64,000 nt of DNA, from contig NZ_ATHQ01000001.1 in the NCBI RefSeq assembly GCF_000523275.1, positions 1,185,289 through 1,249,288 on the forward strand. Reading direction: 5' to 3'. This DNA comes from Lebetimonas sp. JH292 (GTDB taxonomy: Bacteria; Campylobacterota; Campylobacteria; Campylobacterales; Nautiliaceae). Below, one piece after another: positions 11,346 to 53,880 of the stretch. Below the pieces are notes generated by a model. It did no database searches. It was not told the origin of the DNA and saw only the letters and a program-made list of their open reading frames with translations. The position numbers and the translations under genes are program-made. How positions within the stretch are numbered: the stretch's first letter is position 1; each line of letters starts with the position of its first letter.

Positions 11346-12245
11346 TCAATTTTTATGTTTAATAATGTATTTAATGGCATTTTCATAACTTTTTGTATCG
11401 GCTACTCCCTTATAAGCAATGTCAAATGCTGTTCCATGGTCTACTGAAGTCCTGAGTATTGGAAGGTTTAAACTTACATTTATGCTTTCATCAAAATACA
11501 AAGCTTTAAGAGGGGCAAGTCCTTGGTCGTGGTACATTGCAATAAAATTTCCTTTTTTTTCTTTAAAGGCGATATCTGGAACGAGCGGACCGTAAAAAAT
11601 TTCTTTTTCTAAAATTTCGTTTGTTTCTATAACAGCCGGAAATATCTCTTTTATTTCCTCATCTCCTAAAACCCCTCCGTCTCCCGCATGAGGGTTAAGC
11701 GCCAAAACGCCTATTTTTTCAAAATGGGTGCTTCTGTAAAAATCAATAAAGAACTGTATTAATTTTTCTTTTTTTATATTTTTCGGCACTTCTTTTAGGG
11801 GAATATGTTCTGTAAATAAAGCAACATAGAGCTTTTTACACCCAAGCATCATAATCGCTTCTTTTTTAAAAGTATCTCTTAAAACTTCCGTATGGCCTTT
11901 ATATTTAATTCCGGCTTTACTCCAGGCTTCTTTGTTTATTGGAAGGGTGCATATTGCGTCTACTTTTTTTTCTTTTGCAAGTTCAATAGCACTTAAAAAA
12001 CTCTTAAATGAATATTCGGCACTGTTTTTGTCTATTTCCCCCGGATTAATCTCAAAATCCCCTTTAACTTCCACTGTTTCAAAATCATCAGGAATTTCAT
12101 AATTTAATAGTTTTGCACCTTTATTTAGCATTGATTTATTTATACAATATACAGGTTTTACCCATTCTTTAATTTTATTATGACTTTTTAGAGCAATTTC
12201 AAGCCCAATTCCGTTTAAATCCCCTATACTTACTGCTACTTTCAG
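11346..12245 (-). CDS. pdxA: 4-hydroxythreonine-4-phosphate dehydrogenase with a non-canonical (CTG) start
   Basis: PdxA oxidises 4-phosphooxy-threonine in pyridoxal phosphate synthesis. LPINKEAW, YKGHTEVL, LNPHAGDGG and the metal-site YHDQGLAP are all present. The first ATG (12131) would omit the conserved N-terminus. The frame stays open upstream and reads KVAVSIGDLNGIGLEIALKS, the classical PdxA start, preceded by CTG at 12245-12243. No ATG, GTG or TTG occurs between that codon and the upstream in-frame stop. The start lies inside the 3' end of kdsB, so translation may be coupled. A CTG start gives 299 residues, a normal length. Confidence 0.85.
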   Translation of the reverse strand: MKVAVSIGDLNGIGLEIALKSHNKIKEWVKPVYCINKSMLNKGAKLLNYEIPDDFETVEVKGDFEINPGEIDKNSAEYSFKSFLSAIELAKEKKVDAICTLPINKEAWSKAGIKYKGHTEVLRDTFKKEAIMMLGCKKLYVALFTEHIPLKEVPKNIKKEKLIQFFIDFYRSTHFEKIGVLALNPHAGDGGVLGDEEIKEIFPAVIETNEILEKEIFYGPLVPDIAFKEKKGNFIAMYHDQGLAPLKALYFDESINVSLNLPILRTSVDHGTAFDIAYKGVADTKSYENAIKYIIKHKN

Positions 12246-12945
12246 CCATTTCTTTAGCTTTAATTAAATCCTCTTTTGTATCAATCCCAAAACTTTTAGA
12301 TTCAACCTCAATCATTGCTATTTTTTCGCCGTTTTCAAGTACTCTTAACTGTTCAAGTTTTTCAATGTGTTCAAGCCTGCCTTTCATTGTTGTAAATTTA
12401 TCAAGGCTTTTTTTATCGAAACCGTAAATTCCGAGATGTCCTTTGTATCTGTGTGCCTGGTTGTCTCTGTTGTATGGAATTTTTGAGCGGGAAAAATACA
12501 AAGCGTCAGAATTTTTATCAACTACTACTTTTACTAAATTGGGGTCTTGGGCGCTTAATTCGTCTATTATTTTATAACAGCTTACCATTTTAAAGTTTCT
12601 GTTTAAATCAATCAGTTTTTGTTTAACTTTTTGAAGTATAACCGGTTCTAAAAACGGTTCGTCGCCCTGCATATTTATAACAATTTCATTTTCTGGGAGT
12701 TTTAATATATCGCTTGCTTCTTTTATTCTGTCGCTTCCGCTTTTGTGGTTTTTATCTGTAAGCACCGCTTCAAATCCGTATTTTTTACAAACATCAATCA
12801 CTTCTTTTGAATCGGTGGCAATGACCACATCATCAACTTCTTTTGCGCTCTGGGCGCACCATATTATAACGGGTTTGTTTTTTATACTTAGAAGAACTTT
12901 GTTTGGCAGTCTTGAAGAAGAGAGTCTTGCTGGAATTATAATCAT
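12199..12945 (-). CDS. kdsB: 3-deoxy-manno-octulosonate cytidylyltransferase
   Basis: KdsB activates KDO as CMP-KDO for lipopolysaccharide core synthesis. The true start is the ATG at 12945 (MIIIPARLSSSRLPNK), preceded by AAAGGAAA; longer upstream reading is intergenic. NMQGDEPFLE and the final GIDTKEDLIKAKEMA block fit the family, 248 residues. Its last 47 bases overlap the pdxA start in another frame. It shares a compact bidirectional promoter region with the small gene at 12989. Confidence 0.93.
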   Translation of the reverse strand: MIIIPARLSSSRLPNKVLLSIKNKPVIIWCAQSAKEVDDVVIATDSKEVIDVCKKYGFEAVLTDKNHKSGSDRIKEASDILKLPENEIVINMQGDEPFLEPVILQKVKQKLIDLNRNFKMVSCYKIIDELSAQDPNLVKVVVDKNSDALYFSRSKIPYNRDNQAHRYKGHLGIYGFDKKSLDKFTTMKGRLEHIEKLEQLRVLENGEKIAMIEVESKSFGIDTKEDLIKAKEMAESSSKYRGFKRNWA

Positions 12946-20988: not shown

Positions 20989-22148
20989 TGAAAATTTATA
21001 AATTAAACAGCGAAATTGATTTGGCTAAAGTTATGCAAAAAATGGGAGTGGACAAAGTAGGCATTGAAATAATGAAAAAAAAGCGTTCTGTTTATATTTT
21101 TTATATTAAAAACATAAATTGTGCCGCTGCAAATATTCTAAAACAGGACGCTTTAAGCATTGGTGCCGAACTTGCTGTTCCCATAGGGGCTCCAAACTGC
21201 AAAAACAAATATTTTGATGCGCTTTTGTTATGTAATGAAAAACATTTAATTACACTTTCCAAAAAAGAGCTTACTCAGCCGTTTGGGTTGAAAGATTTGG
21301 CAAAACAGCTTAAAAATTTTGTAAATCTTCCTAAATTTCCTTTGAAAATTATGGGGGTTATTAATGCGAATGAAGATTCTTTTTTTGAAGGCAGCAGATT
21401 CAAAGGAAATGAAGCCGTTAAGCAGATTGAAAAAATGATTGACGAAGGTGCGGATATAATTGACTTAGGCGGGGTTTCATCCAGACCCGGAAGTGTTTAT
21501 CCCGGGGTGGAAGAAGAATTAAAGAGGGTCTCCCCTATAATTGATGAAATTTATAAACATAAATTATATGAAAAAGCTGTTTTCAGTATAGATACATTTG
21601 AATCCAAAGTTTTGGAATATGCACTTGAGCGCGGTTTTAAAATAGCAAATGATATTACCGGCCTTGAAAGCGACGAATATGCCGAGGTTGCAGCTAAATA
21701 TAATGCCGATGTTATTATTATGCATAAAAAAGGAATCCCAAAAGATATGCAAAAAAATCCATTTTATGAAAATGTAATTTTGGAAATCGATGAATTTTTT
21801 GAAAAAAGAATTGCAAAAGCAAAAAATTTTGGAATAAAAAATGTAATTTTGGATGTTGGAATAGGCTTTGGTAAAAGACTTGAAGATAATCTTGCGTTAA
21901 TTAAGCATTTGGAGCATTTTTTGCATTTTGGATACGAGCTTTTGATAGGGGCAAGCAGAAAATCTATGATAGATATGATTATGAAAAAATATGGGATATC
22001 CACTTTTCCTTCTGAAAGACTGCCCGGTACTTTGGCAATTCATCAAGAAGCCTTTAGAAACGGGGCAAGCATTATCAGGTGTCATGATGTAAAAGAGCAT
22101 TTTCAGGCTTTAAAAGTTTATGAGGCTGTTAAGGGATTTGATGTTTAG
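20988..22148 (+). CDS. folP: Dihydropteroate synthase
   Basis: The 386-residue enzyme condenses p-aminobenzoate with dihydropterin pyrophosphate in folate synthesis. The TIM-barrel part carries IMGVINANEDSFFEG, DLGGVSSRPGS, SIDTF and DVGIGFGK. About 115 extra N-terminal residues, normal for Campylobacterota FolP, precede it. It ends the rppH-folP cluster and overlaps the ThiF-like remnant by 8 bp. Confidence 0.95.
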   Translation: MKIYKLNSEIDLAKVMQKMGVDKVGIEIMKKKRSVYIFYIKNINCAAANILKQDALSIGAELAVPIGAPNCKNKYFDALLLCNEKHLITLSKKELTQPFGLKDLAKQLKNFVNLPKFPLKIMGVINANEDSFFEGSRFKGNEAVKQIEKMIDEGADIIDLGGVSSRPGSVYPGVEEELKRVSPIIDEIYKHKLYEKAVFSIDTFESKVLEYALERGFKIANDITGLESDEYAEVAAKYNADVIIMHKKGIPKDMQKNPFYENVILEIDEFFEKRIAKAKNFGIKNVILDVGIGFGKRLEDNLALIKHLEHFLHFGYELLIGASRKSMIDMIMKKYGISTFPSERLPGTLAIHQEAFRNGASIIRCHDVKEHFQALKVYEAVKGFDV

Positions 22149-22766
22149 AAGGCAGATTGAATTACTTGGAAAAAAACAAAAACTGCTTGAAAATAAAAAA
22201 ATTTTAATAATCGGGGCAGGGGGGCTTGGAAATGCTTTGGCCACAATAATAAGTTGTATTGGTTTAAAAAGATAATAATTATTGATTTTGACAAAATAGA
22301 AATTCACAATATCCACAGACAGATTCAGTTTACAAAAAATGATTTGGGAAAAAAGAAAGTCAGAGTTTTGGGCGAAAAAATAAAAAGATGCGATACCAAA
22401 ATAGAAATTGTAGAAAATAAATTTTCAAGCGATATGAATTTTGATGTAGATTTGGTTTTTGATGCAACAGATAATTTTGAGGCCAGAGAGGAAATTGATA
22501 AATTTTCCAAAAAAAACTCTATTCCATGGGTATATACGAGCGTGGATGAATATTATGCCCAGGTGGGTTTTTTTAAAAAAACAGATTTTAACACTTTTGC
22601 AACAAAAAAACTTTTTCCCAAAGGGCAAATTCCCCCAATGGTAAGCTTAGCCGCCAGTATAGAAGCGATGGTTGGTGTAAAATATTTAATAGGCGAGCTT
22701 AAAGAAGAAATTTTATATTATATAGATTTCAGTAAAGATTTGGAAATAAAAAAATTTAAATTTTAA
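22141..22766 (+). pseudogene. ThiF/MoeB-family E1-like adenylyltransferase, one frameshift
   Basis: The first 44 codons give RRQIELLGKKQKLLENKK and the nucleotide site ILIIGAGGLGN, then two stops at about 22274. Adding one A to the A5 run at about 22269-22273 restores SCIGLKKIIIIDFDKIEIHNIHRQ and the rest of the family (FDATDNFEAREEID). The product would adenylate a ubiquitin-like sulfur carrier (ThiS/MoaD type). No CxxC pair is visible in the C-terminal part. The lesion is a single homopolymer deletion, so sequence error or slippage are both possible. Confidence 0.75.
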
Positions 22767-23097: not shown

Positions 23098-23811
23098 TCA
23101 ATACCATATTCTTTCTAAATATAAGCCGGTTGGACTAGCCAAATGCTTGGAAATTAATTTTTCTTTGTTTAACTGTTTTTTTAGATCTTTTATATTTAGT
23201 TTTTCTTCGTTAATTTTTAAGATAAAATCCATAATTATTCTGATTTGTCCTCTTAAAAATCCGTTTCCTCTAATATTGAATACATATAAATTTTTATATT
23301 CAAATGCTTTTGCTTCATAAATTTCCCTTATATAATGATTAACACAGCTTCCGGTTTTTGCAAAATACTCAAAATCGTGCCTGCCTATTAAAAGTTTTAA
23401 AGCTTTGTTTATTTTATTTAAATTTACGGACTTATTATAAAACAGTGTATATTTTGCATTAAAAGGTGTAAATTTTTTTGTAATTAAATATCTGTAACTT
23501 CGCTGTTTTGCACTGAATCTCGGATGAAAATCCAAAGGTGCAGTTTCAATTTTTTTAAAATAAATATAAGGATACAAAATATTGTTCAAAGATTTTTTCA
23601 GTTTGTTTAAGTCCCAGAAATCAGGGGCTTCAAAGGAAATTACCTGATTCAATGCATGAACACCCTTATCGGTTCTGCCGGAATGAAAAATTTTAGTGTC
23701 TATGTTTAATTTTTCCAACGCTTTTGATATCTCACCCTGAACGGTTTTTTTATTATTTTGAATCTGCATACCGTAAAATTCGCTGCCGTCATAGGTAATA
23801 ACCGCCTTAAT
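23098..23811 (-). CDS. truA: tRNA pseudouridine(38-40) synthase with apparent ATT start
   Basis: TruA modifies U38-U40 in the tRNA anticodon arm. The catalytic HSGRTDKGVHA block and RSYRYLITKK are present. The first ATG (23769) would remove the conserved opening. Upstream the frame reads KAVITYDGSEFYG, the standard TruA N-terminus, preceded by ATT at 23811-23809, with no ATG/GTG/TTG before the in-frame stop. The ATT overlaps the stop of the upstream gene as TAATT where TAATG is expected. The 237 residues then match family length. Confidence 0.88.
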   Translation of the reverse strand: MKAVITYDGSEFYGMQIQNNKKTVQGEISKALEKLNIDTKIFHSGRTDKGVHALNQVISFEAPDFWDLNKLKKSLNNILYPYIYFKKIETAPLDFHPRFSAKQRSYRYLITKKFTPFNAKYTLFYNKSVNLNKINKALKLLIGRHDFEYFAKTGSCVNHYIREIYEAKAFEYKNLYVFNIRGNGFLRGQIRIIMDFILKINEEKLNIKDLKKQLNKEKLISKHLASPTGLYLERIWY

Positions 23812-24782
23812 TAGAATTTTTTATCCTTTAAATAAAAAAATAATCCGCAAAAAAAGAATAACGATATTATTAATAAATTTATTACAAACGAATTTGTGAT
23901 TTTTGTAAAAATCAAATATATTACTAACAATAAGACAGAATAAACAAGTGAATGGTTTTTATGCAATCTTGGATGAAAAAATCCAAAAAGCGGTATATAA
24001 AAAATCAGTGCTATAGGAATTAATGCAAAAGGTATATAAAATAAAAACAGTTTTTTATTCTTTTTTAAATATTTTTTATATTCTAAGATATTGAAATTTA
24101 TATAAGGGATTATTTGATTAATATTCATTGTTTTAAATTTTATTGTTAAATTTTTATCAATATCATAAATATAACCGTTTTTTAACTGAAAAATCAAATA
24201 ATTTTTATCTTTAATTATAGCGGCGCTGTTTGAAGTTATAAATTTTTTTTCACTCGGGTTGAAAATATATATTTTTTTATAAAAATTTTTTTCTTTTTTT
24301 TCTATAAATGCGTTCCATTTTCCAAATTGTTGTGAAATTTGAGATGTCTGTATATTAAATTTGGCTTCTTGTTTTTTTTCATTTTTGAAATTTTTATAAA
24401 CCAAATCGGAATAGGGGATAGAAATAAAAAGAATAAAAAAATTAACAACAGCAATTAAAACAGATATTATCATAATGGGGAAAAGGATTTTTTTAGGGGA
24501 TATACCAGTTGAAAAAACCGCAACAAGTTCCTGAGTATCACTTAAATTGGAGTATGTCATTACAGAAGCTATGAAAAAAGAAATAGATAAAGTTACAATC
24601 AATATTTTTGTTAAAGATAAAAAATACATTTTGGCAAGTTCTAAAAATGTTATATGTATCGAGGCTGTAACGTTTGAAATGGAGATTATTACAATAATAG
24701 AAGTAATCAGAAATAAAATCAAAAATATATTTATAAATATATTAAAAAAATTTTTTAATATATATTTTTGAAGTTTATCCAT
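23811..24782 (-). CDS. LptF/LptG-type lipopolysaccharide export permease
   Basis: The 323-residue protein has three N-terminal and three C-terminal membrane spans around a periplasmic beta-jellyroll region, the YjgP/YjgQ layout. The motif STGISPKKILFP and the adjacent NLSDTQELVAV are typical of LptF/G. It would move lipopolysaccharide from the inner membrane to the Lpt bridge with LptB. Whether it is LptF or LptG cannot be decided here. It overlaps pilD by 8 bp. Confidence 0.8.
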   Translation of the reverse strand: MDKLQKYILKNFFNIFINIFLILFLITSIIVIISISNVTASIHITFLELAKMYFLSLTKILIVTLSISFFIASVMTYSNLSDTQELVAVFSTGISPKKILFPIMIISVLIAVVNFFILFISIPYSDLVYKNFKNEKKQEAKFNIQTSQISQQFGKWNAFIEKKEKNFYKKIYIFNPSEKKFITSNSAAIIKDKNYLIFQLKNGYIYDIDKNLTIKFKTMNINQIIPYINFNILEYKKYLKKNKKLFLFYIPFALIPIALIFYIPLFGFFHPRLHKNHSLVYSVLLLVIYLIFTKITNSFVINLLIISLFFFCGLFFYLKDKKF

Positions 24783-32892: not shown

Positions 32893-32997
32893 ATGATTGG
32901 TTTTAACGATTTAGCAGGAGAGATTTTTTTAATTTTATTGTTTTTAGGAATAACTATTGGTGTTATTATTGCTGATAAGATAAGGAGAAAAAAATGA
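32893..32997 (+). CDS. Small single-span membrane protein (34 aa)
   Basis: The 34-codon frame (MIGFNDLAGEIFLILLFLG then ITIGVIIADKIRRKK) has one hydrophobic helix and a positive C-terminal tail. Its stop overlaps the ATG of the panE-like gene (ATGA), which suggests coupled translation. The ribosome site is weak. No family is recognised; it may be a small inner-membrane protein or a translated leader. Confidence 0.45.
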   Translation: MIGFNDLAGEIFLILLFLGITIGVIIADKIRRKK

Positions 32998-33795
32998 AAG
33001 TTTTAATAATAGGCCCTGGAGGAGTTGGGGGGTATCTGGCTTATAAATTAAAAAAATGTTCTAATTATGTAAGTGTTATAGGAAGCAGGGGAAGCGTTAA
33101 AAAATTAAAAATAAAAGATGTTGATAAAACTCAGGAAGTTGAATTTGACCCTTTAATAGAAAAATATGATGTGGTTTTTGTAACTGTAAAAAGTTATCAT
33201 TTAAATGAAGTTATAGAAACAATCCAAAAAATTTTTAAAAAATGCAATTGTAGTACCTGTTTTAAACGGAATAGGGCATTTCGAAAAATTTAAAGACTTT
33301 AATTTTAAAAAGTCCTGTATTTATATACTTTCAAATAAAGAAAACGGAATCATTCATAAAAAAACATCTCTTTTTTATTTATGTATTGAAGATAATGAAA
33401 AATTAAAAGAAGTTTTTAAAAACTGCAATGATTTAAAAATAAAATTCAGTGATAATATTGACAAAGATATTTGGAAAAAGTATCTGTTTATCTCTACTTT
33501 TGCGACTTTACAAAGTTTTTATCAAAAACCGACCGGCTGGATTATGGAAGAAAAAAGAGATGAGGTGGAAAAATTTTTGGATGAAGTTATAAAAATAGCA
33601 AAAGAAGAGGGAATTGATTTAAGTGATGAAAAAGAAAGAGTGATAAAACAGGCGCTAAATATACCTTATAATTCTAAAATGAGCATGCAGATTGATTTTG
33701 AAAATGGCAGTATTACAGAAGTGGATAATTTAACAGGTTTTTTGGCTAAAAAGAGTAATTTTATCAATAAATACTATAAAAAGTTAAAACAATAA
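32994..33795 (+). pseudogene. 2-dehydropantoate 2-reductase-like (PanE/ApbA family), one frameshift
   Basis: The start gives the NADP site VLIIGPGGVGGYL and VFVTVKSYHL, then the frame breaks at an A6 run near 33241. Removing one A restores NAIVVPVLNGIGHFEKF and continues to LAKKSNFINKYYKKLK. The C-terminal domain (GWIMEEKRDEVEKFLDEV, with IDFENGSITEVDNLTG) is intact in the second frame. The family reduces ketopantoate for pantothenate synthesis. A single homopolymer insertion could be slippage or sequence error. Confidence 0.78.
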
Positions 33796-51720: not shown

Positions 51721-52118
51721 GCTTATTTTCGTTATTGTTATTTTAGGTATTTTAGCAGCGGTTGCAATTCCAAAATTTCTTGGTGTTGCACAACAGGCCC
51801 ATGAAGCTAATTTAAAAACGTTTGTAGGAACATTAAATAGAAAGTTAAATATACAATTGTGGTAATGCGAACCAGTCACCAAACTTTATTTAATACAAAA
51901 AAACACTCCAGTTTCTACAATAAGAGCCGCAATTTCTTCTTACTTTTTTTGAAACTATCTTTGCTTATCCTGTTTCCAAAACAGACAATATGCTGAAATG
52001 GGACGGGAACGGAACTGATTATAATGTCACATATCAGGGTAAAACGATTTATTTTTATTATGATAAAAATACGGATAACGGAATTTTAACTGTAATCTGT
52101 TTAGATGATGTTTTATGA
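51695..52118 (+). pseudogene. Second prepilin-like gene, multiple frame breaks
   Basis: AAGGAG precedes ATG 51695, which gives KKAFTMIELIFVIVILGILA and AIPKFLGVAQQAHEANLK; a TAA then occurs at 51863. A later frame, restored by removing one T from the T7 run near 51944-51950, gives FFETIFAYPVSKTDNMLKWD and GKTIYFYYDKNTDNGILT to the stop at 52116-52118. The two ends clearly belong to one pilin whose middle has decayed. It overlaps the priA start. Confidence 0.7.
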
Positions 52119-53880
52119 AATAGCAATTCTTAACACCCCGAATATTTTTACTTACAAATCCGATAAAATTTATAAAAAAGGCGATATTGTCGAAATTCCC
52201 CTCAAAAACAGAATAACTTACGGGTATGTTTTAAAAACAGTAAGCAAACCGGATTATGAATGTAAAGAAATAATTGATAAAAAATTTTATTTTAATGAAA
52301 AATATCAGAAAATTATTGAATTTATAAGTAAATATTATTTTTGCGGAGTCGGAGAGGCGGCGGGAAAGTGAAAAATGTAAAGTGAAAAGTGAAAAGTAGA
52401 TATTAAACTCAGTGAAAAACAGAAAGAAGCGCTTGAATTTTTAAAAAAAGAAAATGTTTCTGTTCTTTTTGGAGATACCGGAAGCGGAAAAACAGAAATT
52501 TATATTAAACTTATTGAAGAAACCATAAATCAGGGTAAAAAAGCTCTTTTTTTACTTCCGGAAATTGCAATTACCTCCCAGATGGAAAAAAGGCTTAAAA
52601 AATATTTTGGCGAAACACTTGCAATCTGGCACAGTAAGATTACTAAAAATAAAAAACAGCAAATTCTAAACAGTCTGGATAATATAAAAGTAATCGTAGG
52701 CGCAAGAAGCGCTTTGTTTCTGCCTTTTGAAAACCTGGGGCTTATAATTGTGGACGAAGCGCATGATGATAGTTATAAATCCGAACAAACTCCAAAATAT
52801 AATGCAAAAGATTTGGCGGTTGCTTTTAATAAATTTTTTGGGGTAAAAGTGGTTTTGGGAAGTGCAACACCGCTTGTAAGCGACTTATACAAATTTCCTT
52901 ATTTTAGACTTAAAGGCACTTTTTATGGTAGCCGTAAAACACGTTATTTCAGGGAAAGTTTTGATAAATTTACCATAAAAAAAATATCTGAAAAATTAAA
53001 TCAAAATAAACAAATTATTATTTTTGTCCCAACGAGGGCTAATTTTAAATTTATGATTTGTAAAAACTGCGGCGAAGCCGTAAAATGCAAAAACTGTGAT
53101 ATTGCCATGAGTATTCACAAAGATAAAAGGGCTCTTGTATGTCATTACTGCGGATATATCTCCCCTATTCCAAAAACATGCCCAAAGTGCGGGGGAGACG
53201 AATTTATAAATGAAAGAAAAGGAACAAGTGAGATTGTAGAAGAATTAAAACAAATTTTCCCTGAAGCTAAAATAGAAAAGTTTGACAGGGACATAATAAC
53301 TTCCAAAAGCAGGATAGACAAGCTGTTAAAAAGATTTGAAAACCGTGAAATTGATATACTGGTTGGAACTCAGATGCTAAGTAAGGGGCACGATTATCCG
53401 GATGTTGCTTTGAGTATAGTAACGGATATAGATTTTATTTTGAATACGCCTGATTTCAGGGCGAGGGAGAGGGCTTTTTCCTTAGCCGGACAGGTTGAAG
53501 GTAGAGCTGGTAGAAAAGAAGACGGAGAGGTTATTGTCATTACCCAAAATAAAGAATTTTTTAATAAAAGTTATGAAGATTTTTTTGCTGAGGAAATAGA
53601 ATACAGAAAAGATTTGGGGTATCCCCCTTTTTCAAGACTTGCAAAAGTAGAATTTACTGATAAGAAAAAAGAGGTTGCACAAAAAAATTTAAAAGAATTT
53701 ATTAAATGTATAGGAAATAAAGAGGAATTAATTGGTTTTGGAGAAGCTCCGATTTTCAAGCTTAAAAACAGATACCGCTATTTTGCCCTTTTTAAAGGTA
53801 AAAATCTTCATAAAATTATTTATCCCTGTATTGATTTGGCAAAAGCAAAAGTTGATATGGACCCCGTAAGTTTTATTTAA
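52105..53880 (+). pseudogene. priA: Primosomal helicase PriA interrupted by a heptamer repeat with stop codons
   Basis: Codons from ATG 52105 give the PriA N-terminal DNA-binding part (NIFTYKSDKIYKKGDIVEIP, FISKYYFCGVGEAAG). A 35-bp heptamer tract (52368-52402) then brings in-frame TGA, TAA, TGA. The same frame resumes with [14 protein letters not shown], Walker [25 protein letters not shown], the zinc cysteines [13 protein letters not shown]...CHYCG...CPKCG and the rest. The next ATG (52582) lies after Walker A and would give an inactive helicase. PriA restarts stalled forks, so loss should be costly. Confidence 0.8.
52368..52402. repeat. Heptamer repeat interrupting priA
   Basis: Five units GTGAAAA-ATGTAAA-GTGAAAA-GTGAAAA-GTAGATA sit at the linker between the N-terminal domain and the helicase core of PriA and create three in-frame stops. 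Confidence 0.85.

What the first reader, a model, noticed from the sequence alone, without database searches (positions are those of the whole stretch)
23098..23811. truA appears to start with ATT in a TAATT overlap
The conserved TruA opening KAVITYDGS is preceded by ATT exactly where a TAATG stop-start overlap with the upstream permease gene is expected. No other start codon lies before the in-frame stop. ATT starts are rare, and in infC and pcnB they limit expression. With pdxA this makes two apparent non-canonical starts in one window.
Basis: seen in the sequence. Interest (0 to 1): 0.55.

Follow-up and report, generated by a model that had tools for sequence, protein, structure and literature searches.

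The report
truA starts at a conserved AUU
The gene for the tRNA-modifying enzyme TruA in this vent-type bacterium appears to begin at the rare start codon AUU instead of AUG, and several relatives share it, so it looks like a kept feature of translation and not a sequencing error.

Summary
No ATG/GTG/TTG lies between the in-frame stop (23823-23821) and the conserved TruA motif YDGS. It lies 8 codons before the Tyr, where 30 of 49 canonical copies have a start codon, fits position 1 of the TruA profile, and follows AAAGGA at 6 nt. Seven of 56 truA copies from 55 genomes lack a canonical start; all seven have ATT in this setting, one in a genome that by size is Nautilia profundicola. Twelve sister copies use an ATG four codons upstream (ATGGA), at or 1 nt from the AAGGA of the ATT copies. 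Sequencing error, internal start and conserved frameshift are disfavoured or excluded. Among 211 gene pairs of two Nautilia-type genomes truA alone remained after inspection. pdxA is different: its frame is broken here. Likely mechanism: SD-driven, probably permease-coupled initiation at AUU giving low TruA output. Direct proof is missing.

The parts
23098..23817 (-). truA (tRNA pseudouridine(38-40) synthase), 239 codons from ATT, then TGA
   Evidence: TIGR00071 206 bits, cut-off 142.85, residues 3-233 = profile 3-227 of 228; E. coli TruA 1dj0 E 2.8e-24
23815..23817 (-). proposed start codon ATT
   Evidence: ATT in 7 of 7 copies that lack a canonical start
23824..23829 (-). Shine-Dalgarno sequence AAAGGA, 6 nt before ATT
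   Evidence: AAAGGA in all 7 copies, aligned spacing 4-5; local genes peak at 3-5
23821..23823 (-). in-frame TAA upstream of truA
   Evidence: homologue directly upstream in all 7 ATT copies
23811..23817 (-). overlap ATTCTAA: truA start and permease stop; ATTTTAR in the other six ATT copies
23809..23811 (-).
   Evidence: GTA/GTT in the two nearest relatives; spacing 12 nt
23767..23769 (-). first internal ATG; rejected as the start
   Evidence: would drop YDGSxFxG; in G032 copy C8 the first internal canonical codon is residue 137

Best explanation
truA of this Nautiliales-type bacterium is translated from an AUU start codon at 23817-23815. The ribosome is placed by the SD AAAGGA 6 nt upstream, initiator fMet-tRNA is accepted at AUU, and the protein begins M-L-I-K-A-V-I-T-Y-D-G-S. 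The start overlaps the end of the permease gene (ATTCTAA), so ribosomes that finish the permease are well placed to start truA; coupling and a low, possibly IF3-sensitive output of TruA are inferred. Shown by sequence: absence of canonical starts, conservation of ATT plus SD, right position in the family profile, mostly silent change in the first codons. Inferred: use of AUU in the cell, coupling, low expression, any IF3 control. The stated confidence is for AUU 23817 as the start; for coupling and low output I would give about 0.5.
For: Seven of 56 truA copies have no canonical start before YDG and all seven have ATT-TTA (ATT-CTA here) 7-9 codons before the Tyr. All seven have AAAGGA at aligned spacing 4-5. 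TIGR00071 position 3 falls on residue 3 of the protein from 23817. One copy (G032 C8) has no other canonical codon before residue 137. Between G005 and G008, 18 of 19 aligned residues before the first canonical codon are identical with 4 silent codon changes (four of the 19 lie before the ATT); of the 211 pairs, 20 others were flagged and, read by eye, are two selenoprotein-like ORFs, one startless ORF that is antisense to a ferredoxin-like gene, and 17 with an ATG or TTG behind a conserved leader. G008 is one contig of 1,676,444 bp, the size published for the N. profundicola chromosome (PMC2628731, passages).
Against: No protein or ribosome-profiling data. The seven copies are few and related (one, G032 C7, may be a contaminating contig). 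The ATT overlaps the permease's last Phe codon and stop, so part of its conservation may come from the permease. Twelve of the 17 Nautiliaceae-type (family f1) genomes with a truA match use an ATG four codons upstream and one (G004) an ATG at the ATT place, so AUU is not indispensable.
Confidence: 0.88

Rival explanations
1. AUU is the start, but it is kept only because the region also encodes the end of the permease (Phe-stop); it is a tolerated weak start with no regulatory role. (This competes with the regulatory half of the best explanation, not with AUU itself.)
For: The permease also ends in ATTTTAR in 6 of 12 ATG-type sisters, where the ATT is not needed as start. In G004, where tblastn found no permease upstream, ATG stands at the ATT place.
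Against: The first base of the ATT is a third position of the permease frame and free to vary: 7 A, 3 G, 2 C in the 12 ATG-type copies, but A in 7 of 7 ATT copies; few and related sequences, so weak.
Confidence: 0.45
2. A -1 frameshift at the AAAAAA run joins the permease to TruA.
For: In G000, G001 and G032 C7 the permease passes through AAAAAA just before its stop, and -1 would enter the truA frame.
Against: The G005, G008, G049 and G032 C8 copies lack the run but keep ATT plus SD. The SD is at the right spacing.
Confidence: 0.04
3. Sequencing or assembly error at the start.
For: Other genes of this window do have broken frames.
Against: Same ATT-plus-SD junction in G001, G032, G005, G008 and G049.
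Confidence: 0.01
4. TruA starts at the internal ATG 23769 and lacks the first 16 residues.
For: ATG at this place in 6 of 7 ATT copies; the shortened protein still passes TIGR00071 at 183 bits.
Against: Removes YDGSxFxG, which aligns with E. coli TruA; codons before it change mostly silently; no such ATG in G032 C8.
Confidence: 0.03
5. Start at the ATT of TAATT (23811).
For: The TAATT is there.
Against: Not conserved, spacing 12 nt, 6 codons before the Tyr.
Confidence: 0.03

Closest known systems
infC (IF3), AUU start in E. coli, AUA in S. aureus
   Same: Rare AUN start that regulates translation; extended SD in S. aureus (PMC1780047 and PMC13009471, passages; Butler 1987 and Sacerdot 1996 seen only as reference entries)
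   Different: Here the gene is truA; infC has an ATG start in 19 of 19 copies from family f1; no test of IF3 control
pcnB, AUU start in E. coli
   Same: AUU start said to reduce expression (PMC1780047, passage; Binns and Masters 2002 only as reference entry)
   Different: Different gene; the truA start overlaps an upstream gene
cvfC1 (AUU) and ccpN (AUA) of Staphylococcus
   Same: Conserved non-canonical start with strong extended SD (PMC13009471, passages)
   Different: Shown there by ribosome profiling and reporters; here only by comparison of genomes
[quoted passage not shown]
   Same: AUU inferred because it alone restores full length (PMC1780047, passage)
   Different: Named there for two distant species; here a conserved junction in several genera of one group

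Membership tests
Gene with an AUU start codon | No canonical start upstream of conserved coding sequence | tested here: met
Gene with an AUU start codon | AUU at the family's start position with a well spaced SD | tested here: met
Gene with an AUU start codon | Conservation in related genomes | tested here: met
   7 of 56 copies, in three parts of the tree
Gene with an AUU start codon | Initiation shown by N-terminal peptide, ribosome profiling or reporter | not testable with these tools
   no such data at hand
infC-type IF3 autoregulation | The AUU-started gene encodes IF3 | tested here: not met
   Gene is truA; infC itself has ATG
infC-type IF3 autoregulation | Output depends on IF3 | not testable with these tools
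   needs a reporter
TruA family | Over curated cut-off of TIGR00071 and GRTD motif | tested here: met
   206 bits vs 142.85; GRTD begins at residue 47 (that its Asp is catalytic is recalled)

The most novel reading that the evidence does not exclude
In Nautiliales the AUU checkpoint sits on truA instead of infC: an ancestral SD-AUU junction, overlapping the permease stop, ties the supply of a tRNA anticodon-arm modifying enzyme to IF3 and to permease translation, and sister lineages left this control when their SD AAGGA became an in-frame ATGGA start.
Probability: 0.15. Interest if true: 0.75.

Novelty: new member of a known kind. Interest (0 to 1): 0.5.

Why it matters
AUU-started genes on record seem few: the passages I read name infC, pcnB, cvfC1 and presumed lepA cases. 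A conserved one on a tRNA-modification gene, in a group whose infC copies have ATG (19 of 19), gives a natural test of why weak starts persist. The sister lineages offer a ready comparison: a ribosome-binding site that seems to have become a start codon in the same frame. In practice, a start caller limited to ATG/GTG/TTG would place these truA starts too far downstream, at residue 137 in one copy.

Tried and rejected
RNA folds of the seven junctions looked different from one another and were not used. A link through an AUU-started infC was looked for and not found: ATG in 19 of 19 copies from 21 genomes searched. Papers: (truA, start codon, AUU) gave one paper, a review of modified nucleosides, seen as listing; (hisT, translation initiation, pseudouridine synthase, start codon) 66 papers, ten listed; (AUU, start codon, Epsilonproteobacteria, translation initiation) one paper on CsrA, listing; some searches were also read as listings, save the passages cited. 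None of the listings named an AUU-started truA; 'not in print' rests on these searches of an open-access library alone. The direction of the AUU/ATG changes could not be settled: the fewest changes on the tree are three, well supported branches alone force two.

Full report
Observation. On the minus strand the truA frame reads TAA (23823-23821) AAA ATT CTA ATT AAG GCG GTT ATT ACC TAT GAC GGC AGC. There is no ATG, GTG or TTG before the ATG at 23769. The protein is TruA (TIGR00071, 206 bits, cut-off 142.85; E. coli TruA 1dj0, E 2.8e-24).

Which ATT. The same-genus genome G001 reads AAAGGATAAAAA ATT TTA GTA AAA and the other nearest copy (G032 contig C7) AAAGGATAAAAA ATT TTA GTT AAA. ATT 23817 is thus kept and ATT 23811 is not. 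Profile position 3 of the TruA family falls on residue 3 of the protein begun at 23817, so that residue 1 fits position 1. AAAGGA stands 6 nt before 23817 (aligned spacing 4) and 12 nt before 23811 (aligned spacing 10); among genes with a detectable SD in four genome stretches the spacing peaks at 3-5 (7 to 14 genes of each stretch had no SD of 4 nt or more).

Survey. Of 60 genomes searched, 55 had a truA match. I read the junction in 56 copies from these 55 genomes; the one match left out was a 44-residue fragment in G041. 49 copies have a canonical codon before the Tyr of YDG, and in 30 of these one lies exactly 8 codons before it. Seven have none: G000, G001, G032 C7, G032 C8, G005, G008, G049. 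All seven have ATT 7 to 9 codons before the Tyr, followed by TTA (CTA here), with AAAGGA at aligned spacing 4-5. G008 is one contig of 1,676,444 bp, the size published for N. profundicola (PMC2628731, passages), so its identity is inferred. G032 C7 may be a contaminating contig, since G032 holds a second truA; without it six copies remain.

Rivals. An internal start at 23769 would remove the YDGSxFxG segment that aligns with E. coli TruA; in G032 C8 the first internal canonical codon is residue 137. The 12 codons before that ATG differ mostly silently among the three nearest copies: 3 to 6 silent and 1 to 2 non-silent per pair. A -1 frameshift at AAAAAA is possible in these three copies but not in G005, G008, G049 and G032 C8, which lack the run yet keep ATT and SD. 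An assembly error is excluded by the independent genomes.

How unusual. In 260 kb each of G005 and G008, 211 reciprocal gene pairs were compared. Twenty-one were flagged for conserved residues before the first canonical codon. Read by eye: two follow an in-frame TGA and look like selenoproteins (formate dehydrogenase and SelD, names recalled, not searched); one is a startless ORF antisense to a ferredoxin-like gene; 17 have an ATG or TTG behind a conserved leader of 8 to 32 codons. Only truA remains. In the earlier screen of the window and stretches of G001, G005 and G008 (74, 89, 72 and 66 ORFs) truA was the only gene flagged in all four; I took the other flagged ORFs for leaders, TTG starts, overlapping ORFs or the window's broken frames (by eye).

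Evolution. In a TruA tree built without the N-terminus, the copies of families f1 and f13 form one branch (100/95), G032 C7 included. AUU occurs in three parts of it; the fewest changes are three (bootstrap trees 3-4; well supported branches alone force two). Twelve ATG-type copies begin ATGGA exactly four codons before the place of the ATT. The G005, G008, G049 and G032 C8 copies have AAGGA, their SD, at that very place; in the window and its two nearest copies it is shifted by one nucleotide. One A-to-T change would turn AAGGA into ATGGA. Since the outer f13 copies have AAGGA plus ATT, an AUU ancestor is my guess, but the tree does not settle it. I checked the SD of six of the twelve ATG-type copies: five have one at aligned spacing 9-12 and one has none, so these too seem to have a poor initiation site.

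Mechanism. Best reading: SD-driven initiation at AUU, probably by ribosomes ending the permease, whose stop lies within the first three codons of truA in all seven ATT copies. Published work says that conserved AUU and AUA starts with extended SD reduce initiation efficiency, and that extra IF3 inhibits non-canonical starts (PMC13009471 and PMC2268962, passages). A low output of TruA follows by analogy, not by test. infC, the textbook AUU gene, has ATG in 19 of 19 copies found in 21 family genomes.

pdxA. G001 has ATG in an overlap with the gene upstream; in the window the pdxA frame lacks it and the upstream frame runs past the expected stop, which fits a frame shift. Frames of a ThiF-like, a ketopantoate-reductase-like and a PriA-like gene are also broken in the window but open in G001 in the parts shown (names recalled from their sequences). 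This points to indels in this assembly or real decay, and does not touch truA.

Noticed in passing
11349-12263 (-): pdxA-like frame has no canonical start; the same-genus genome G001 has ATG there in an overlap with the upstream gene, and the window's upstream frame runs past its expected stop: fits a frame shift, not a conserved rare start.
   Followed up: partly
22114-22763 (+): ThiF-like gene split between two frames in the window, open in G001.
   Followed up: partly
32994-33792 (+): Ketopantoate-reductase-like gene split between two frames; in G001, G005 and G008 the frame continues upstream through the stretch shown.
   Followed up: partly
52105-53877 (+): PriA-like helicase split between two frames near a short AAGTGAAA-type repeat; in G001 and G005 the frame continues upstream through the stretch shown.
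   Followed up: partly
L045-L047 and L096-L105 joined (G005), about 163751-164734 (-) and 184095-186365 (+): Two ORFs that follow an in-frame TGA with conserved protein look like selenoproteins (SelD and formate dehydrogenase, recalled).
   Followed up: no
L002 (G032 C7) and L040 (G032 C8): Genome G032 holds two truA genes, one 77% identical to the window's: contamination or a second copy.
   Followed up: no
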